From NCBI GenBank assembly GCA_023150845.1, contig JAKLKD010000039.1, positions 1 to 39,404 on the forward strand: 39,404 nucleotides of DNA, read 5' to 3'. Shown one piece after another: positions 8,996 to 17,591 of the stretch. Every line of letters begins with the position of its first letter. Within the stretch, counting starts at the first letter, position 1. Both the position numbers and the translations under genes were made by a program. Below the pieces are notes generated by a model that worked only from the letters and a program-made list of their open reading frames with translations, was not told the DNA's origin and ran no database searches. The DNA comes from Myxococcota bacterium. Its GTDB lineage: Bacteria; Myxococcota_A; UBA796; CAJQPC01.

Positions 8996-9017
8996 GCCTC
9001 GGCTTATAGGCTGAGGC
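8996..9017. terminator. Candidate bidirectional stem-loop between convergent genes
   Basis: GCCTCGGC (8996-9003) can pair with GCTGAGGC (9010-9017), an 8-bp stem with one G-T pair around the loop TTATAG. It lies 10 bases after the acyl-CoA synthetase stop and contains the TAA stop of the opposing FG-GAP gene in its loop. There is no U-tract, so intrinsic termination is only a possibility. Confidence 0.35.
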
Positions 9018-10434
9018 CCCACACCGCCCCGGCGCCGCTCTCGGCGCCGGTCGCGCCCAAGAAGAAGGTCTCGCCGTCGCCGCTTACGCTGCTGCCGGCC
9101 TTCGCCCCGGCCTCGGGGCCGAGCCAGAGGGCGCCTTCGTCAAACGTGCGGCTGCCGCTGTGCGGACCGTAGAGCAAGGCGAAGGCCCCGGCGTCCGCGC
9201 CGCCGCCGTCGTGTCGCGTGGCGCCGACCCACAGCTCACCGTAGCCGTCGCCGTCGAGATCCCCGGCGCTGTACACCGCGAAGCCGACGCGGTCCCCGGC
9301 GGCGCTGGCGACGATCACGGCCAGGGTGTCGTCCCGGTCCAGGCGGCCGCGGGCGGCGCCAGAGACGAGCCAGACCTCCCCGCCGGGCTCGGCCTCCATC
9401 ACCCCCGTCGCCCAGTCGTTGAGGCCGTCGCCGTCGAGATCCCCTCCGGCGGTCATGGACTTGCCGAGCTGGTCGTTCGCCCCGCGCCCACGGAGCGTGG
9501 TGTCGGCATCGGCGCTCACCGTCGTGCCCGACGGCGGGTCCAAGAAGACGTAGGCCACGCCGGACGCGGCGGCCTCGCCGTCCTCGCCCATGGCGCCGAT
9601 GATGAGGTCCACCGCGCCGTCGCCGTCGAGGTCGGAGGCCGCGCCCGAGGAGCCGAACCAGCCGAGCTTCTGGGCACCCGAGAGCCGGGTGGTGGCGTCG
9701 TTCACGTCCAAGGTCCCGCTGAGCCCGGCGACGACGAAGCCGAAGACCGCGCCGGAGTCTTGGGCGGCGCCGTCCTGGGCCATGCCCAAGGCCCACAAGG
9801 TCTCTTCAGCGCCGGTCCCGGTGACGAAGAGGCCGTTCCCGAGCTGGGCGTCGGCCTCGCCGAAGATCGACGCCGCGGGGCTCGCAGAGTGTAAAGCATC
9901 ACTGTACACATCGACGCGACCGGCCCGGGTGCCACCCGTGGGCTCCCAGAACGCGGAGACGGCGAGGCCGCCCCCGGAGAGCGCGGCGAGGCCGACGCCG
10001 AAGTAGCCGCCGCTGCTCGTGAGCACGGCGTCGGCGTTCTCGGCCAGAAGCTCACCCTCGGGGGCGTTGAACAAGAGCACCGCGCCTGTGCCGCCGCCCC
10101 GGGCCGCCGCCCCGACAGCCCAGGCCTCCCCGACCCGCGCCGCGCTGGTGCCGACGCCGTCCCCGGCCGCGCCCCGGGCCACCGTAGGCACCGACGAGAG
10201 GCTCACCTGCCCCTCGACCCGCCCGGTGTCGCCGGTCTCGCCGGTCTCTCGGCCCGTCTCGCCGGTCTCCCCGCCGGTCTCCCGCCCTGTCTCCCGGCCC
10301 GTCTCGCCGGTCTCTTCAGAGTCTAGGCGGCCGCTGTGGCCGTCGCCGGTCTCTGCGGAGTCGACGACACGGGGTGCCTTGTGAGGACCACAGCCGCCCA
10401 GCGTGAGGGTGACCAGGAGCAGAGGAGTTCTCAT
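9004..10434 (-). CDS. FG-GAP repeat lipoprotein with a Glu-Thr-Gly low-complexity linker
   Basis: A predicted surface or periplasmic lipoprotein of 476 residues with no recognisable catalytic site. A short hydrophobic leader (LLLVTLTLGGC) ends with a lipobox cysteine at residue 15. Residues about 38-72 are a repetitive ETG/RETG/DTG linker. The rest is a series of integrin-alpha-like FG-GAP blades. Three carry calcium-loop DLDGDG motifs at about 268-273, 332-337 and 392-397, each followed by an IIGA-, ATGV- or WVGA-like strand. Such proteins form calcium-binding beta-propellers, often on the cell surface. It is divergent from the mevalonate operon (66-base gap) and convergent with the acyl-CoA synthetase. 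The linker DNA (about 10219-10320) is made of imperfect 9-15-base tandem units. Confidence 0.82.
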   Translation of the reverse strand: MRTPLLLVTLTLGGCGPHKAPRVVDSAETGDGHSGRLDSEETGETGRETGRETGGETGETGRETGETGDTGRVEGQVSLSSVPTVARGAAGDGVGTSAARVGEAWAVGAAARGGGTGAVLLFNAPEGELLAENADAVLTSSGGYFGVGLAALSGGGLAVSAFWEPTGGTRAGRVDVYSDALHSASPAASIFGEADAQLGNGLFVTGTGAEETLWALGMAQDGAAQDSGAVFGFVVAGLSGTLDVNDATTRLSGAQKLGWFGSSGAASDLDGDGAVDLIIGAMGEDGEAAASGVAYVFLDPPSGTTVSADADTTLRGRGANDQLGKSMTAGGDLDGDGLNDWATGVMEAEPGGEVWLVSGAARGRLDRDDTLAVIVASAAGDRVGFAVYSAGDLDGDGYGELWVGATRHDGGGADAGAFALLYGPHSGSRTFDEGALWLGPEAGAKAGSSVSGDGETFFLGATGAESGAGAVWGLSL

Positions 10435-10500: not shown

Positions 10501-11781
10501 ATGAGCTCCCGCATCCCCGGCTTCTACAAGCTTCTGCCCCAGGCGCGCCTCGACGCCCTGGAGTCGCACCTCGGCGTCGACACCGCCGGGTTCCTCAGCG
10601 ACGGGCTGCCCCTCGAGACCGCGGACCTCATGGTGGAGAACGTCGTCTCCACCTTCCCGCTGCCGCTCTCCGTGGCGATCAACCTCCTGCTGAACGGCCA
10701 AGACATCGCCGTGCCGATGGTCGTTGAGGAGCCCTCCGTCGTCGCCGCCGTCTCGAACATGGCCCGGCTCACCCGCCGCGCCGGGGGCGTGACCGCCGAG
10801 GCCGACGACGGCGTGATGACCGGCCAGCTCCAGGTGATCCCCAAGGGGGACCCCGAGGTCTGCGCCGCGGCGCTCCGGGCGGAGCTCCCCGCGCTCATCG
10901 CCGCGGCCACCGGGGTCCACCCCAAGCTTGAGGAGCGCGGCGGCGGCCTGCGCGGCGTCGATGTGCGCCTCGTCACCTACGACGAGCCGGGCTTCCCCGT
11001 CGAGCGCTACGTCGTGCTCCACGTTCACCTCGACTGTGTGGACGCCATGGGCGCGAACATGGTGAACACCCTCGTCGAGCGCCTCGCGCCCCTCGTCGAG
11101 GCGATCACCGGCGAGCGTGTGGGCCTGCGTATCCTCACGAACCTCGCCGACCGCCGCCTCGCCCGCGCCCGGGTGAGCCTGCGCCCCGAGCACCTCGACC
11201 CTGAGAACGGCACCGGCGCCGAGGTCGCCGAGGGCATCGCCGCCGCCTGGCGCTTCGCCTGGGCCGACCCCTACCGCGCCACCACCCACAACAAGGGCGT
11301 GATGAACGGCGTCGACCCCGTCGCCATCGCCACGGGCAACGACTGGCGCGCCATCGAGGCCGGGGCCCACGCCTACGCCGCCCGCGACGGCCAGTACCGC
11401 CCCCTCACCCGCTGGGTCGTCGACGCCGAGGGCACGCTCCAGGGCTCCATCGAGCTTCCCCTCCAGGTGGGCACCGTCGGCGGGCCCATCCGGGTGCACC
11501 CGCGGGTCCAGGCGAACCTCGCGCTCTTGGGCGGCCCCCGCGCCCGCCAGCTCGCCGGGATCATGGCCGCCGTGGGCCTCATCCAGAACCTCGGCGCCCT
11601 GCGCGCCTTGGCCACCGAGGGCATCCAGCAGGGCCACATGCGCATGCACGCCCGCAGCGTCGCGGCCATGGTCGGCGCCACCGGGGCCGAGGCCCTGGCC
11701 GTCGCGAAGACCCTCCACAGCCTCGGTGACTTCTCTGAGGAGACCGCGCGACGGGTGCTCGCCGGGCTGCGCGGCTCGTGA
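10501..11781 (+). CDS. mvaA: Hydroxymethylglutaryl-CoA reductase, class II type
   Basis: Reduces HMG-CoA to mevalonate (or the reverse), the committed step of the mevalonate pathway; 426 residues. Motifs fit the class II bacterial enzyme of the Pseudomonas mevalonii type: the glutamate in VEEPS (76-77), CVDAMGANMVNT (180-191), the lysine of THNKG (K266), the aspartate of GNDWR (D282) and the catalytic histidine of GHMRMHAR (H380). These positions nearly coincide with K267, D283 and H381 of the P. mevalonii enzyme. No membrane segment is present. The start is the ATG at 10501; I see no well-spaced Shine-Dalgarno. The gene overlaps the mevalonate kinase start (GTGA at 11778-11781). With the genes that follow, a biosynthetic direction is more likely than mevalonate catabolism. 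Confidence 0.92.
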   Translation: MSSRIPGFYKLLPQARLDALESHLGVDTAGFLSDGLPLETADLMVENVVSTFPLPLSVAINLLLNGQDIAVPMVVEEPSVVAAVSNMARLTRRAGGVTAEADDGVMTGQLQVIPKGDPEVCAAALRAELPALIAAATGVHPKLEERGGGLRGVDVRLVTYDEPGFPVERYVVLHVHLDCVDAMGANMVNTLVERLAPLVEAITGERVGLRILTNLADRRLARARVSLRPEHLDPENGTGAEVAEGIAAAWRFAWADPYRATTHNKGVMNGVDPVAIATGNDWRAIEAGAHAYAARDGQYRPLTRWVVDAEGTLQGSIELPLQVGTVGGPIRVHPRVQANLALLGGPRARQLAGIMAAVGLIQNLGALRALATEGIQQGHMRMHARSVAAMVGATGAEALAVAKTLHSLGDFSEETARRVLAGLRGS

Positions 11782-12638
11782 GCGGGGCCTGGATCGGGCG
11801 CGCGCCGGGCAAGCTCATCCTCTTGGGTGAGCACAGCGTCGTCGTCGGCCACCGCGCCATCGCCGCCGCCGTGTCCCGGGGCACGACGGTGCGGCTGGAC
11901 CCCATCGACGGGCCGACCCGCCTCGGCGAGTCCGCGATCCAAGACGACCGCCTGATGACCGCGCTCCAGGCCGTGCTCCCCGCTGAGGGCCTGGAGGTGC
12001 ACATCTCGACGGACCTGCCCGTCGGCCGGGGCATGGGCAGCTCCGCGGCCTTGGCCATCGCCCTGCTCCGCGCCCGCGCCGCCCGGGAGGGGCGCGCCCC
12101 GAGCTTCGCCGAGCTTCACCGCGACGGCTTCGTCATCGAGCGGGTCTTCCACGGCAACCCCTCGGGCCTCGACCACTGCGTCGTGGCCATGGGCGGCGCG
12201 GTGCTCTACCGCCGCGGCGAGGCCCCGACGCCGCTCCAGATGCCGTCTTATGCGGTCGTGGTCCTCGACAGCGGCGTCGCCGGGGACACGGGGCAGCTCG
12301 TCGCCGGGGTGGCCTCTCGCAGGCCCGGCGTCGATCCCGCGCTCAACCGTCTGGGAGAGCTCGTCGAGCTCGCGCTCCCCGCGCTCCACGATCCTCACGC
12401 CCTGGGCGGGATCATGAACGAGGCCCACGGGCGGCTGCGCGAGATCGGCGTCTCGACGCCCTCCTTGGACGACATGTGCGCTCTGGCGCTCCAGAACGGC
12501 GCTCTCGGCGCCAAGCTCTCCGGCGCGGGCGGGGGCGGGGTCGTCCTCGCTTTGTGCCCCGATGGTGGGGAGGGTCTTGTTCAAGCCGCCGCGCGGCGTA
12601 AGATCGCGGCGTTTGCTTGTCGGCTCCCGGAGGCATGA
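11778..12638 (+). CDS. mvk: Mevalonate kinase (GHMP family)
   Basis: Phosphorylates mevalonate to 5-phosphomevalonate with ATP. The protein is 286 residues from a GTG start that overlaps the HMG-CoA reductase stop. The three GHMP-kinase motifs are in order: APGKLILLGEHSVV near the N-terminus, the phosphate-binding loop LPVGRGMGSSAALAIA around residues 80-95, and the C-terminal KLSGAGGGGVVLAL. The GEHSVVVGH motif and HGNPSGLDH are specific to mevalonate kinases within the GHMP group. Its stop shares bases with the decarboxylase start (TGATG at 12636-12640). It acts second in the operon-encoded pathway. Confidence 0.9.
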   Translation: MSGAWIGRAPGKLILLGEHSVVVGHRAIAAAVSRGTTVRLDPIDGPTRLGESAIQDDRLMTALQAVLPAEGLEVHISTDLPVGRGMGSSAALAIALLRARAAREGRAPSFAELHRDGFVIERVFHGNPSGLDHCVVAMGGAVLYRRGEAPTPLQMPSYAVVVLDSGVAGDTGQLVAGVASRRPGVDPALNRLGELVELALPALHDPHALGGIMNEAHGRLREIGVSTPSLDDMCALALQNGALGAKLSGAGGGGVVLALCPDGGEGLVQAAARRKIAAFACRLPEA

Positions 12639-13627
12639 TGGCAACGGCGATCGCTCACCCAAACATCGCGCTGGTCAAGTACTGGGGTAAACGAGACGTT
12701 GACCTCAACCTGCCGTCGACCAGCTCGATCTCGGTGACCCTCGACTCGTTTCAGACCCAGACCACCGTGCGTTGGGACTCCCCGCGTGACCTCGCTTGGG
12801 TGGACGGCAAGCCCGCGACCCCGGCGGACGCGAAGAAGATCTTCAAGCACCTCGACCTCATCACCCCAGGCCGCCCCCCGGCCCGGGTGATCACCCACTC
12901 AAACTTCCCCGTCGCCGCGGGCCTGGCCTCGTCGTCATCCGCCTTCGCCGCGCTGACCATCGCCGCCGCCGACGCCGCCGGGGAGCGTTTCTCCCCCGAG
13001 GAGCTCTCCTGCCTGGCCCGCCAGGGCTCGGGCTCGGCCTGCCGCTCCTTGTGGGGCGGCTTCGTGGAGTGGCGCCGGGGCATGCTCAGCGACGGCAGCG
13101 ACTCCCACGGCCTGCACCTCGCCCCCCGGGACCACTGGGACCTGCGCGTCGTGGTCGCGATCATCGACGGCGGCCAGAAGAAGATGCCCTCGACCAAGGG
13201 CATGATCCACACCATGGAGACCTCGCCGATGTACCAGGCCTGGACGCTTTCGTCCGACCGGGACGTGAGCGAGGCCCGGCACGCGATCATGGAGCGGGAT
13301 CTGGAGAGCCTGGGCCAGGCCATGGAGCGCTCCACCCTCAAGATGCACGCGACGATGATGACCGCCGACCCGCCGATCCGCTACTGGAAGTCCACGTCGG
13401 TCTGGGCCATGGACGCCGTCGAGGATCTGCGCCGCCAGGGCATCTCCGCCTGGTGGACCATGGACGCGGGCCCGAACGTGAAGATCCTCTGCGAGGCCGA
13501 GCACGCCGAGCACATCGCCCAGCGCCTCCGGGTGCTCGTGGACGAGGTGCTCGTGCTCAAGATCGGCGAGGGTCCACGCCGTGTGCCCGACGACGAGGAG
13601 GCCCTTGCCCGCTTCCCCGTCCGCTGA
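12638..13627 (+). CDS. mvaD: Diphosphomevalonate decarboxylase
   Basis: Converts mevalonate 5-diphosphate to isopentenyl diphosphate with ATP hydrolysis and decarboxylation; 329 residues. The diagnostic N-terminus HPNIALVKYWGKRD is present. So are the phosphate-binding loop NFPVAAGLASSSSAFAAL, CRSLWGGFVEW, and the late aspartate motif WWTMDAGPNVKIL. The ATG at 12638 lies in a TGATG overlap with the kinase and has GGAGG at 12629-12633. An ATG three bases earlier (12635) and a TTG at 12617 are alternative starts. The last 47 bases overlap the next gene if that gene starts at 13581. Confidence 0.92.
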   Translation: MATAIAHPNIALVKYWGKRDVDLNLPSTSSISVTLDSFQTQTTVRWDSPRDLAWVDGKPATPADAKKIFKHLDLITPGRPPARVITHSNFPVAAGLASSSSAFAALTIAAADAAGERFSPEELSCLARQGSGSACRSLWGGFVEWRRGMLSDGSDSHGLHLAPRDHWDLRVVVAIIDGGQKKMPSTKGMIHTMETSPMYQAWTLSSDRDVSEARHAIMERDLESLGQAMERSTLKMHATMMTADPPIRYWKSTSVWAMDAVEDLRRQGISAWWTMDAGPNVKILCEAEHAEHIAQRLRVLVDEVLVLKIGEGPRRVPDDEEALARFPVR

Positions 13628-14498
13628 CCGCGCGCTGACCGTCCTCGCCCCGGGGAAGCTCGTGCTCGTCGGGGAGTACGCCGTGCTCGATGGCGCCCCC
13701 GCGGTCGTCGCCGCCGTAGACCGGGGCGTGCGCTGCGAGGTGCGCCCGGGCGACGCCGTCGAGACCCCCGCCGACGACCGCTTCGCCCGCGCCGCCCTCC
13801 AGGCCGTCTCGGCGCCGCCCCGGCGGTACCGCTTCTCCGACTGGAACCCCGTGTCTCTGCCCGAGGGCAAGGCGGGCTTCGGCGGGAGCGCCGCGGCCTG
13901 CGTCGCCGCCGTGGTCGCCGGGCGCATCGCCTCGGGCCACACCCTGAGCGGCGCCGACGCGGCCCTCGCCCGGCGGGTCCACCAGGAGGTCCAAGGCTCG
14001 GGCTCCGGGGTGGACGTGCTGGCGTCGTGGTACGGCGGCCTGCGGCGCTTTGAGGGCCTCACCCACACCGCGCTCCCGGCGCGGCGCCTCGTCGCGGTCT
14101 ACTCCGGGCGCTCGGCGTCTACGGGCCCGCGGGTGCAGCGTTACCTCCAGTGGTCGGGCCGCCAGGGCTTTGTCGACGAGTCCGCCGCCCTGGCCGACCT
14201 CTTCGCCGCTGATCCAATCGCCGCATTGCAGCACGGATTTACGCTGCTCTGCAACATGGCTCGGGCCGCCGGGGTCGAGTATGAGACCCCCGGCCTCCGG
14301 CGCATCGTGGACCTCGCCGCGTCCTATGGGGGCGCCGCGAAGCCCTCCGGCGCTGGCGGCGGGGACGTCGCCGTGGCGATGTTCCCCGAGGCTGAGGCCG
14401 AGGCCGCGTTCTGCGCCGCCTGCGCGGCCGAGGGCCTGCCCCCGATCCCCGTGACGATCGCCCTTGGCGCCGCATCGAGCGCCCTCTCGGAGCCCTGA
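13581..14498 (+). CDS. mvaK2: Phosphomevalonate kinase (GHMP family)
   Basis: Converts phosphomevalonate to diphosphomevalonate. The protein is up to 305 residues. GHMP motifs are APGKLVLVGEYAVLDG, GKAGFGGSAAACVAAVVAG and KPSGAGGGDVAVAMF; the GEYAVLDG and GSGSGVDVLASWYGG motifs are those of bacterial phosphomevalonate kinases. The start is uncertain. A GTG at 13581 has GAGGG ending 8 bases upstream and gives a 47-base overlap with the decarboxylase gene. A TTG at 13605 has GAGGAGG only 3 bases upstream and gives a 23-base overlap. No ATG exists before the first motif, so a non-ATG start inside the upstream gene is required either way. The stop overlaps the next start as TGATG. Confidence 0.87.
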   Translation: MCPTTRRPLPASPSADRALTVLAPGKLVLVGEYAVLDGAPAVVAAVDRGVRCEVRPGDAVETPADDRFARAALQAVSAPPRRYRFSDWNPVSLPEGKAGFGGSAAACVAAVVAGRIASGHTLSGADAALARRVHQEVQGSGSGVDVLASWYGGLRRFEGLTHTALPARRLVAVYSGRSASTGPRVQRYLQWSGRQGFVDESAALADLFAADPIAALQHGFTLLCNMARAAGVEYETPGLRRIVDLAASYGGAAKPSGAGGGDVAVAMFPEAEAEAAFCAACAAEGLPPIPVTIALGAASSALSEP

Positions 14499-15586
14499 TG
14501 CCCCCCGACAGCCACGACGCCCCCGCGCCCATCTCGTCCCGCAAAGCCGAGCACATCGCGCTCTGCGAGACGGATGACGTGGCCTTCCGGGCGCAGACGA
14601 ACCTGCTCGACGAGGTGCAGCTCGTTCACGACGCCCTGCCAGAGCTGGCCCTGGAGGACATCGACCTCAGCGTCACCTTCTGCGGCAAGACGCTCAAGGC
14701 GCCCCTCATCATCGCGGCGATGACCGGCGGCACAGCCCAGGCCGAGTCCATCAACCGCACCTTGGCCGACGTGGCCCAGCGCCACGGCCTCGGCTTCGGC
14801 TTCGGCTCCCAGCGGCCCCTGCTCTCCGGGGTGACCGAAGGCTACGCCGTGCGGGACGTGGCCCCGGACGCGCTCATCTTGGGCAACCTCGGCCTCGTCC
14901 AGGCCCGGGAGACCTCCACCGCCGCCATCGAGCGCCTCATCACCACCTGCGGGGCCGACGCCCTCTGCCTGCACCTCAACCCGGCGATGGAGGTGATTCA
15001 GCCCGGCGGTGACGTCGACTTCCGCGACGGCCTCAAGACCATCACGCGGCTCGTGCAGGAGCTCTCCGTGCCCGTCGTCGTCAAAGAGACGGGCTGCGGC
15101 CTCTCCCGTGACCTCGGGCGCCGCCTCGTCGATGTCGGCGTGCGCTGGGTGGACACCTCCGGCGCCGGGGGCACCTCTTGGGTGGGCGTCGAGACCCTCC
15201 GCGCCAAGGCCGACCAGCGGGCCCTGGGGGAGCGTTTCTGGGACTGGGGCATCCCGACGGCGGCCTCGGTGGTGCAGCTCGCCGACCTCGGCCTGGGCAT
15301 CTGCGCGACCGGGGGTGTCGCCGACGGCCTCGCCGCCGCCCACGCCGTCGCCCTAGGCGCCACCGCGGCTGGGGTCGCCCGGCCCTTCTTGCAGGCGCTC
15401 TCCCAAGGAGGCCCCGAGGGCCTGGAGCGCCGGGTGAGGTTGGTCCTCGACGAGCTCCGCTTCGCCCACTTCTTGTCCGGGGCCCGGACCCCCGCGGCGC
15501 TTCAGGCCAAGCCGATCCTCGTCGGGCCGCGCCTCGCCCGCTGGATCCCCAAGGGGAGCCCGCTGCGCGACCGGGCGATGCTGTAG
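14498..15586 (+). CDS. fni: Type 2 isopentenyl-diphosphate delta-isomerase (FMN-dependent)
   Basis: Interconverts IPP and DMAPP using reduced FMN; 362 residues in a TIM-barrel fold. Family motifs are RKAEHIALC near residues 15-23, the flavin-site AAMTGGTAQAESINR (73-87) and GFGSQRPLL (101-109). The substrate and metal motif HLNPAMEVIQPGGD (159-172), VKETGCGLS (195-203) and WVDTSGAGGTSW (217-228) follow. It is the last gene of the overlapping mevalonate operon. Thus all steps from HMG-CoA to both C5 prenyl precursors are encoded together. HMG-CoA synthase is not found in the window. Confidence 0.92.
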   Translation: MPPDSHDAPAPISSRKAEHIALCETDDVAFRAQTNLLDEVQLVHDALPELALEDIDLSVTFCGKTLKAPLIIAAMTGGTAQAESINRTLADVAQRHGLGFGFGSQRPLLSGVTEGYAVRDVAPDALILGNLGLVQARETSTAAIERLITTCGADALCLHLNPAMEVIQPGGDVDFRDGLKTITRLVQELSVPVVVKETGCGLSRDLGRRLVDVGVRWVDTSGAGGTSWVGVETLRAKADQRALGERFWDWGIPTAASVVQLADLGLGICATGGVADGLAAAHAVALGATAAGVARPFLQALSQGGPEGLERRVRLVLDELRFAHFLSGARTPAALQAKPILVGPRLARWIPKGSPLRDRAML

Positions 15587-15632: not shown

Positions 15633-16166
15633 ATGAACGCCGGACAGCTCCTCCATCGCCTCCCTGAGCCGATCAAGCAGGCCATCAAGGACAAGGTCTA
15701 CCCCCAGCTCCTCCTCGAGGGGGAGACGGTGCCCGAGTGGCACCTCCAGTCCTGGGACGGCGCCTGGTTCCGCCACAACAACAACAAGTGGACCGTGCTC
15801 GTCGTCTACCCCGGCGACGACACCCCGGGCTGCACAGCGCAGCTCCAGGACATGCAGGCCCACTACGCCCGCTTCAAGGAGCTGGGCGCAGAGATCTACG
15901 GGATCAACCCCGCCGAGGCGCCCTCCCACAAGGCCTTCGCCGAGAAGCACGGCTTCACCTTCCCGCTGCTCACCGACCGCGGCGGCGTGGTCGCCCGGCA
16001 GCTCCGGGCCGCGGTGCAGCTCCCGCTCAAGACCGTCATCTTACGCACGGTCTACCTCGTGAACCCCGAGCGGAAGATCCGCCTCGCCAACCGCGGCGCG
16101 CCCCCGGCGTCGGCGATCATCCGCTCCATCGAGGCGCTCCAGCAGGCGACCCGGGCGGGGATGTAG
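15633..16166 (+). CDS. Peroxiredoxin, AhpC/TSA family, Bcp/PrxQ-like
   Basis: A thiol peroxidase of 177 residues. The peroxidatic cysteine lies in YPGDDTPGCTAQ, the Bcp/PrxQ form of the PxxxTxxC motif, at about residue 67. The surrounding thioredoxin-like fold is recognisable (WTVLVVYPG; EIYGINPAEAPSHKAFAEKHGF; LLTDRGGVVARQL). About 35 residues precede the usual start of the domain. No second cysteine follows within the helix after the peroxidatic residue, so a 1-Cys mechanism is likely. AAAGGA lies 6 bases before the ATG. The stop codon lies inside the left copy of the 14-bp direct repeat described below. It is 46 bases after the isomerase gene. Confidence 0.85.
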   Translation: MNAGQLLHRLPEPIKQAIKDKVYPQLLLEGETVPEWHLQSWDGAWFRHNNNKWTVLVVYPGDDTPGCTAQLQDMQAHYARFKELGAEIYGINPAEAPSHKAFAEKHGFTFPLLTDRGGVVARQLRAAVQLPLKTVILRTVYLVNPERKIRLANRGAPPASAIIRSIEALQQATRAGM

Positions 16167-16174: not shown

Positions 16175-16316
16175 AAGAAACGATCGTTTCTTTACTCAGC
16201 TCGTTAAGAAACGATCGTTTCTTTACTCAACCCGTTAAGAAACGATCGTTTCTCTCACCAACCCGCTAAGAAACGATCGTTTCTCTCACCAACCCGCTAA
16301 GAAACGATCGTTTCTC
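16175..16316. repeat. Five tandem copies of an 18-bp palindrome at an exact 31-bp period
   Basis: The palindrome AAGAAACGATCGTTTCTT occurs at 16175-16192 and 16206-16223. It recurs with a final C instead of T at 16237-16254, 16268-16285 and 16299-16316. The 16-base core AGAAACGATCGTTTCT is perfectly self-complementary in all five copies. The 13-base spacers (CTCA, then CCCG or CTCG, then TT or CT) are nearly alike, so each unit is a 31-base direct repeat. A 31-bp step is close to three helical turns, which would put five dimer sites on one face of the DNA. The array is much richer in A and T than its surroundings and lies directly upstream of the Fic gene, whose product carries a C-terminal winged helix. 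An operator array is the simplest reading; iteron-like or methylation functions (GATC and CGATCG in every copy) remain possible. Confidence 0.9.
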
Positions 16317-16347: not shown

Positions 16348-16389
16348 GTGAGCTTCAACCGGATCGTTCGGCCCCGAGCGCCCCGATGA
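16348..16389 (+). CDS. Possible 13-residue leader peptide coupled to the Fic gene
   Basis: A GTG at 16348 opens a 13-codon frame (MSFNRIVRPRAPR) that ends in a TGA overlapping the ATG of the Fic gene as ATGA (16386-16389). GGGGAGG at 16331-16337 is the only good Shine-Dalgarno in the region and sits 10 bases before this GTG. The Fic ATG itself has no evident ribosome-binding site. The arrangement suggests translational coupling, but so short a frame could arise by chance. Confidence 0.35.
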   Translation: MSFNRIVRPRAPR

Positions 16390-17591
16390 GCCGCGTCACC
16401 GGGGAGTACGACACCATCACCACCACGGGTGAGGCGGTGCGCGCCTTCGTGCCGTACCCGCTGCCTCCTCGGGATCCGCCCTTGGCGCTGGATGGCCGGG
16501 TCGCCGCGCTCCTCGTCGAGGCGAACGCCCGGCTGCGTGAGCTTGAGCTCGCTGGGGACCTCGTCCCCTCCATCGAGTGGTTCGTGTACGCCTTCGTGCG
16601 AAAAGAGGCCATCCTCTCCGCGCAGATCGAGGGCACCCAGGCCACGCTCATGGATCTGCTCAACATCGAGGCCTCCAGCGAGGCCCCGGTCGACGCCGAC
16701 GTGGAGGAGGTCTGCGGTTACCTCTCCGCCGTCGGTTACGCCTGGGACCAGGTCGCCCGGGACGATGGGCTCCCCATCTCCACGCGGCTCCTGTCGGAGA
16801 CCCACCGACGGCTGCTCAGCGGCGCGCGGGGCGCCTTCAAGCAGCCCGGCGAGGTGCGCCGCTCACAGAACTGGATCGGCGGCACCCGCCCGGGCAACGC
16901 CGCCTTCGTGCCGCCCCCGCCCCATCGCCTGCCCGAGCTCCTCAGCGAGTTTGAGCGGGCCATCCATGACGAGAGCGACCTCCCGCCGCTGGTCCGCGTC
17001 GCCTTGTTGCACGTTCAGTTCGAGACGCTCCACCCCTACCTCGACGGCAACGGGAGGCTCGGGCGGCTCCTCATCACCCTGCTGCTGCGGCACTGGGGCC
17101 TGCTCACCCGCCCGTTGCTCTACCTGAGCCTCTACCTCAAGCGGCACCGCGGCGAGTACTACCGCCGCCTCAGCGCGGTGCGTGAGCAGGGGGACTGGGA
17201 GGGCTGGCTCTGCTTCTTCTTGGAGGGCGTCGCCCTGATCGCCGCGGAGACCGTAGACACGGCGCGGGCCCTGCACGCCGTCGTCGAGACGAGCCGCCAG
17301 CGGCTCCTGCACCATGAAGACGCCACCGTGCTCAGCCTGCGGCTCTTTGAGCTGCTGCCCAAGAACCCGCTCCTCTCCGTGAGCCGGGCCATGACGCTCT
17401 TGGGCTGCTCACGCCCCGCCGCCGCGAAGGCCCTGGACGTCTTGGAGGCCGCGGAGATCATGCTCCCCCGGGACGACCACCGCCGAGGGCGTGTCCTCAT
17501 GTTTGAGGAGTACCTCAGCTACCTCCGGCAAGACACGGAGCTAGAGCCCGCGCCGCAGACCCAACCGCAGATGACCCAAGCGCCGATGTAG
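16386..17591 (+). CDS. Class II Fic family protein (AMPylase-type) with C-terminal winged helix
   Basis: Fic enzymes usually transfer AMP from ATP to a target hydroxyl. This protein is 401 residues. An N-terminal Fic_N-like region (about 20-95) contains the inhibitory-helix motif (S/T)xxxE(G/N) as SAQIEG, with S78 and E82-G83. This makes it a class II, self-inhibited Fic. The catalytic motif is complete: HPYLDGNGRLGR at 216-227, with the catalytic H216 and the phosphate-binding GNGR. A C-terminal winged-helix-like segment follows at about 340-390 (SVSRAMTLLGCSRPAAAKAL then LEAAEIM). This domain order is known for many bacterial Fic proteins. The palindrome array lies immediately upstream, so autoregulation through the winged helix is plausible. 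No separate antitoxin gene is adjacent, in line with class II. The target is unknown. Base composition resembles its neighbours. Confidence 0.9.
   Translation: MSRVTGEYDTITTTGEAVRAFVPYPLPPRDPPLALDGRVAALLVEANARLRELELAGDLVPSIEWFVYAFVRKEAILSAQIEGTQATLMDLLNIEASSEAPVDADVEEVCGYLSAVGYAWDQVARDDGLPISTRLLSETHRRLLSGARGAFKQPGEVRRSQNWIGGTRPGNAAFVPPPPHRLPELLSEFERAIHDESDLPPLVRVALLHVQFETLHPYLDGNGRLGRLLITLLLRHWGLLTRPLLYLSLYLKRHRGEYYRRLSAVREQGDWEGWLCFFLEGVALIAAETVDTARALHAVVETSRQRLLHHEDATVLSLRLFELLPKNPLLSVSRAMTLLGCSRPAAAKALDVLEAAEIMLPRDDHRRGRVLMFEEYLSYLRQDTELEPAPQTQPQMTQAPM

What the first reader, a model, noticed from the sequence alone, without database searches (positions are those of the whole stretch)
16175..16316. 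Five helically phased perfect palindromes upstream of a Fic gene
The 16-bp core AGAAACGATCGTTTCT is repeated five times without a mismatch at an exact 31-bp step, close to three helical turns. Only the outer base and spacers vary (two copies end TT, three end TC). Perfect conservation of the symmetric core against drifting spacers points to selection for binding by a dimer. Fic proteins with a C-terminal winged helix are known, but I know of no described phased five-site operator for one. Cooperative binding along one DNA face would give a sharp switch. I propose that the Fic protein, possibly in an AMPylation-dependent state, binds its own array.
Basis: partly seen in the sequence, partly recalled or inferred. 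Interest (0 to 1): 0.78.

Follow-up and report, generated by a model that had tools for sequence, protein, structure and literature searches.

The report
Phased self-operator array of a Fic toxin
Five identical DNA palindromes, spaced almost exactly three turns of the helix apart, sit in front of a gene for a SoFic-type AMP-transferring enzyme; the same 31-base spacing, with matching changes in the palindrome sequence, recurs in front of relatives of this gene in at least five bacterial phyla, so it is very probably the enzyme's own multi-site off-switch.

Summary
In detail: five perfect copies of AGAAACGATCGTTTCT, step 31 bp, lie before a Fic gene. There is no other copy within two mismatches in the 7.13-Mb genome. 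The sister genome's Fic has the same array (cores 96% identical, spacers 41%). Among 100 related Fic genes, one well-supported clade of 48, spanning Myxococcota, Planctomycetota, Acidobacteriota, Latescibacterota and Pseudomonadota, has a 31-bp-phased palindrome array directly upstream in 38 cases by a strict rule; none of the 52 outside the clade has one. Palindrome sequence differs between subclades, both halves changing together, while neighbouring genes share nothing. In several phyla the middle palindrome fills or overlaps the -35/-10 spacer. The protein is a SoFic-family class II Fic enzyme with a C-terminal winged helix. Best explanation: the Fic dimer represses its own promoter by filling the array. 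Autorepression by a Fic-HTH protein is already shown for CccR (one 46-bp operator), so the principle is known. The conserved multi-site phased array, and its place in the SoFic anti-phage family, appear undescribed in the papers searched. No binding was tested; AMPylation dependence is untested.

The parts
16176..16191 (.). palindrome 1, AGAAACGATCGTTTCT
   Evidence: exact 16-bp palindrome
16207..16222 (.). palindrome 2
   Evidence: 31-bp step
16238..16253 (.). palindrome 3
   Evidence: 31-bp step
16269..16284 (.). palindrome 4
   Evidence: 31-bp step
16300..16315 (.). palindrome 5
   Evidence: 31-bp step
16386..17591 (+). Fic gene, 401 aa, SoFic-like, class II Fic with C-terminal winged helix; proposed repressor that reads the array
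   Evidence: Fic_N and Fic in Pfam, PADLOC SoFic E 3.9e-106, AlphaFold2 pLDDT 89.3 and PDB fold matches to SoFic
16617..16634 (+). codons 78-83 SAQIEG, motif of the class II inhibitory helix
   Evidence: E82 and G83 invariant in 58 relatives; CccR has SARIEG
17031..17066 (+). codons 216-227 HPYLDGNGRLGR, Fic catalytic motif, intact
   Evidence: H216, P217, D220-R224, G226, R227 invariant in 58 relatives
17328..17543 (+). codons 315-386, winged helix-turn-helix domain; putative recognition helix codons 343-355 at 17412-17450
   Evidence: three helices and a strand in the AlphaFold2 model; fold match to SoFic, whose C-terminal domain is a winged helix

Best explanation
The five palindromes are the operator array of the Fic gene itself. 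A Fic dimer binds the symmetric 14-16 bp sites through its C-terminal winged helices. Because the sites lie 31 bp (about three turns) apart they face the same side of the DNA, so bound dimers can touch or bridge and fill the array together, shutting the fic promoter with a steep dose response. This keeps a SoFic-type AMPylating toxin at a low level until it is diluted, titrated or changes state. Shown here: array, conservation, co-variation, exclusivity, promoter overlap in relatives, protein fold. Inferred: that Fic is the binder, repression, cooperativity. Speculative: control by ATP or AMPylation state.
For: (1) Same array before the sister-genus Fic; core 96% and spacer 41% identical. (2) Similar palindrome pairs at lag 31: 35 pairs in 24 of 89 Fic upstream regions, 1 in 2795 control windows from the same loci; other lags 0-3. 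(3) On a 100-row tree the array is confined to one clade with 100/100 support: 38 of 48 rows inside, 0 of 52 outside. (4) At sites chosen only by the 31-bp lattice, complementarity of pairs 2 to 8 from the centre exceeds shuffles, e.g. 44/83 against 28.2 (sd 4.1) at pair 7. (5) Five genomes: GAARCGATCGYTTC occurs only at the Fic array. (6) Flanking genes are shared only with the sister genome; no ORF family recurs beside more than 3 of 48 clade loci. (7) In Planctomycetota loci the operator is exactly the 17-bp promoter spacer (TTGACT-AAGAAGCGATCGCTTCT-TAGACT, L068; likewise L069, L065; L075 in Acidobacteriota), and it overlaps the -10 in beta- and gammaproteobacteria. (8) Winged helix in the model. 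(9) CccR precedent.
Against: No binding or expression data. No sigma-70-like promoter is found in the window array itself, so where RNA polymerase binds here is unknown. Tandem duplication explains part of the perfect identity. Recognition-helix types and operator types match by subclade, but this is only a few independent contrasts. Outside this clade SoFic relatives have other dyads, so the array is not needed for the family as a whole.
Confidence: 0.82

Rival explanations
1. The array is read by an unlinked regulator (for example a TetR-family protein such as PsrA, whose motif as I remember it, GAAAC-N4-GTTTC, looks alike), which controls fic.
For: The remembered PsrA consensus fits the window core (own knowledge, not tested).
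Against: The genome has no second site. The site sequence changes with Fic subclade to TTAAAG..CTTTAA, GAACG..CGTTC and GTCAAG..CTTGAC while the 31-bp step stays. The array travels with Fic into unrelated contexts including a plasmid.
Confidence: 0.07
2. The palindromes act as RNA hairpins in the fic leader (attenuation or RNA binding).
For: Paired changes also fit hairpins; the sites precede the gene.
Against: In relatives the central site lies inside the -35/-10 spacer and a further site lies upstream of -35, so neither would be transcribed from that promoter. The would-be loop GATC is itself symmetric. The exact 31-bp step is not needed by hairpins.
Confidence: 0.04
3. A neutral minisatellite: a 31-bp unit duplicated by slippage, without function.
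For: Spacers 3 and 4 are identical; spacers are 71% alike within the array.
Against: Cores stay at 96% against 41% for spacers between two species; the same step recurs in other phyla with unlike units.
Confidence: 0.02
4. A variant of the best explanation: autoregulation, but each Fic dimer bridges two neighbouring palindromes, one winged helix on each, so that dimers form a chain; this would explain why the step, not the site number, is fixed. Its confidence is a share of the best explanation's, not in addition to it.
For: CccR HTHs are 70.2 A apart and its boxes are separated by 26 bp (PMC9755527); facing half-sites of neighbouring palindromes here are about 23 bp centre to centre, near 78 A by simple geometry.
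Against: Each palindrome is symmetric by itself, and some loci show a single strong site. The dimer of this protein was not modelled.
Confidence: 0.25

Closest known systems
CccR of Yersinia pseudotuberculosis (PMC9755527; PDB 7xux)
   Same: Class II Fic domain with S-x-x-x-E-G inhibitory helix, C-terminal HTH, dimer, represses its own promoter through inverted repeats near the -35 and -10 boxes.
   Different: One operator, AGATAATCAT-N26-ATGATAATCT (46-nt footprint), instead of an array of compact palindromes at 31 bp; a T6SS effector; fold match only TM 0.58.
SoFic anti-phage family (Shewanella SO_4266, PDB 3eqx and 3zcn; E. coli EcSofic, PMC12249575)
   Same: Full-length profile match, same domain order, winged helix at the C-terminus.
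   Different: No DNA binding or operator is mentioned in the EcSofic passages found, which report an antitoxin gene AS1 downstream; the Coxiella paper states that SoFic DNA binding had not been shown. SoFic-like genes outside this clade have longer dyads, not the array.
Coxiella burnetii CbFic2 (PMC10628234; PDB 8cil)
   Same: Fic enzyme with an HTH that binds DNA; its title reports DNA-binding-induced (de)AMPylation.
   Different: Random DNA was used in its assays; no operator is known.
Phd-Doc operators (toxin-antitoxin)
   Same: Fic-fold toxin under a palindromic autoregulatory operator.
   Different: DNA binding is by the separate antitoxin Phd, not by the toxin.

Membership tests
SoFic family | Full-length match to the SoFic profile | tested here: met
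   PADLOC SoFic E 3.9e-106, profile 5-359 of 361
SoFic family | NCBIfam SoFic equivalog cut-off | tested here: not met
   158 bits against a cut-off of 550: a family relative, not the same enzyme by that standard
SoFic family | Class II inhibitory helix and intact catalytic motif | tested here: met
   SAQIEG and HPYLDGNGRLGR, invariant key residues in 58 rows
SoFic family | C-terminal winged helix | tested here: met
   AlphaFold2 model and PDB matches 3zcn, 3eqx, 7cb8
SoFic family | Abortive anti-phage defence | not testable with these tools
   needs a phage assay
CccR-type Fic autorepressor | Inverted repeats over the gene's own promoter | tested here: inconclusive
   met in relatives with clear promoters; in the window the repeats are there but no promoter was recognised
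CccR-type Fic autorepressor | Single operator with two boxes separated by 26 bp | tested here: not met
   compact palindromes in 31-bp steps
CccR-type Fic autorepressor | Direct binding and repression by the Fic protein | not testable with these tools
   needs gel shift and reporter
Phd-Doc type operator | Separate DNA-binding antitoxin gene beside the toxin | tested here: not met
   no ORF family recurs near more than 3 of 48 clade loci

The most novel reading that the evidence does not exclude
The array is not only an off-switch for transcription but a DNA-held safety for the toxin: array-bound Fic has its winged helix kept away from the catalytic domain, whose contact is needed for EcSofic toxicity (PMC12249575), so loss, titration or degradation of the array during infection would release active enzyme and derepress the gene at once.
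Probability: 0.1. Interest if true: 0.88.

Novelty: new variant of a known kind. Interest (0 to 1): 0.62.

Why it matters
How SoFic-type toxins stay silent in healthy cells and switch on during infection is stated as open in PMC12249575. A conserved, sequence-defined multi-site operator with one apparent target in the genome makes the DNA arm of that control directly testable. It gives a predictive signature (31-bp palindrome lattice) for Fic autorepressors across phyla, and natural sets of matching recognition helices and operators for the study of specificity and cooperativity.

Tried and rejected
A search for the exact tandem of two cores found it only in this genome among 58; relatives carry changed palindromes. 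The palindromes in L007, L008 and L013 at first looked downstream of Fic; those loci hold Fic on the minus strand, and the arrays are upstream. A link between single recognition-helix residues and half-site bases was looked at and not claimed: too few independent changes. The promoter scan of the window found nothing. Gapped inverted-repeat statistics showed excess at many gaps and were used only as a sign that other SoFic relatives have longer dyads. Several protein alignments failed on stop codons and were redone. The 2009 SoFic structure paper (PMC2674511) was not held. Considered and rejected: RNA hairpins, minisatellite, unlinked regulator (see rivals).

Full report
Observation. The window holds five copies of AGAAACGATCGTTTCT at 16176, 16207, 16238, 16269 and 16300, each 31 bp after the last, without a mismatch. 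They lie between a peroxiredoxin gene (15633-16166) and a Fic gene (16386-17591), both on the plus strand. In the 7.13-Mb genome there is no further copy with up to two mismatches. By base composition 5e-5 copies are expected.

The protein. Pfam gives Fic_N and Fic; PADLOC gives SoFic at E 3.9e-106 over the full length. The NCBIfam SoFic equivalog cut-off is not reached. The inhibitory-helix motif SAQIEG and the catalytic motif HPYLDGNGRLGR are intact. An AlphaFold2 model from 58 sequences has mean pLDDT 89.3 and ends in a winged helix (helices 315-326, 332-339, 343-355, then a strand). Best solved folds are 7cb8 (TM 0.82), SoFic 3zcn and 3eqx (0.73-0.74), CccR 7xux (0.58) and CbFic2 8cil (0.56).

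Relatives in the order. The sister genome of the same genus has the Fic gene in the same place (84% identity) with at least six such sites on the same 31-bp lattice. Cores are 96% and spacers 41% identical between the two. More distant orthologues in other gene contexts have GAAGCGATCGCTTC or GAACG....CGTTC sites, again at 31 bp. In five genomes the pattern GAARCGATCGYTTC occurs only in front of the Fic gene.

Relatives elsewhere. A scan of one genome per species gave 80 loci from many phyla. Pairs of palindromes (at least 6 of 8 base pairs each) show 36 cases at lag 31 and 0-3 at every other lag from 12 to 59. With a similarity condition there are 35 pairs in 24 of 89 upstream regions and 1 in 2795 control windows. 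Taking the best palindrome of each region and looking 31 bp away, 17% of neighbours reach 6 of 8; at other distances 0-1.3% do. A tree of 100 Fic proteins puts all 38 array bearers (strict rule) in one clade of 48 with full support; 0 of 52 outside. The label was set from the DNA alone. The clade spans Myxococcota, Planctomycetota, Acidobacteriota, Latescibacterota and Pseudomonadota. Most of the ten clade members that miss the strict rule look like decayed arrays by eye, for example L011, L060 and L091; this is a judgement, not a test. At lattice neighbours chosen without regard to symmetry, complementarity is above shuffles at pairs 2 to 8 from the centre. Related sequences are not independent, so the shuffle numbers overstate certainty; the spread over subclades with unlike motifs is the stronger argument.

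Promoter geometry. In four loci of Planctomycetota and Acidobacteriota the palindrome is the 17-bp spacer between -35 and -10, for example TTGACT-AAGAAGCGATCGCTTCT-TAGACT; in beta- and gammaproteobacteria it overlaps the -10. Usual site centres are near -70, -39 and -8 from the start codon. This is where a repressor would act, and it speaks against an RNA role. In the window the last site centres at -78 and no promoter was recognised.

Who binds. Flanking genes are shared only with the sister genome and no ORF family recurs near more than three of 48 clade loci, so no other regulator travels with the array. In Citrobacter freundii plasmid NZ_CP119052.1 the Fic gene follows a relaxase gene, with the array in the short gap. 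The recognition helix differs between subclades in step with the operator type, but with too few independent changes to claim more.

Mechanism. Most likely the Fic dimer represses its own promoter and fills the same-faced sites cooperatively. Binding and cooperativity are inferred. Whether one dimer sits on each palindrome or bridges two is open: in CccR the HTHs are 70.2 A apart and its boxes are separated by 26 bp (PMC9755527); facing half-sites of neighbouring palindromes here are about 23 bp apart.

Comparison and novelty. Autorepression by a Fic-HTH protein is known from CccR, and the idea that HTH domains fused to Fic regulate fic was raised in 2009 (PMC2686095). Nine literature searches found no multi-site or phased operator read by a Fic protein, within an open-access library only. 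The finding is a new variant of a known kind, and it extends to a family studied for anti-phage defence whose control is open (PMC12249575).

Noticed in passing
L084-L118, L119-L148, upstream of the Fic start: SoFic relatives outside the array clade often have one long dyad instead, e.g. TTATTTAAGAAAAACCGCATTTGCTTAAATAA in Delftia (L089): probably another operator form, half-sites about 20 bp apart.
   Followed up: partly
L017-L020, L027, L028: A further Fic group in the same order has TAAGCGCAGG...CCTGCGCTTA-like dyads just before the gene.
   Followed up: no
L149 3890-4003 (Citrobacter freundii plasmid NZ_CP119052.1): Fic gene with a TTAAAG-type array directly after a relaxase gene; at least 13 similar Enterobacteriaceae plasmids carry this Fic gene.
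   Followed up: partly
window 10501-15586: Run of genes that reads like a mevalonate pathway (HMG-CoA reductase, GHMP kinases, decarboxylase, type 2 isomerase); only the last was checked, as FMN-dependent dehydrogenase family.
   Followed up: no
window 9004-10434 (minus strand): Protein with a low-complexity GETGETGRETGGETGETGRETGETGDTG stretch near its N-terminus.
   Followed up: no
L042, L041; L094, L112: Near-identical Fic genes in records labelled Klebsiella MAG and delta proteobacterium, and in Paracoccus and a spirochaete MAG: recent transfer or mis-binned contigs.
   Followed up: no
L056, L073, L074; L059, L078: A few clade loci share neighbouring ORFs with each other, one of them with a helicase-like start; possibly defence-island context.
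   Followed up: no
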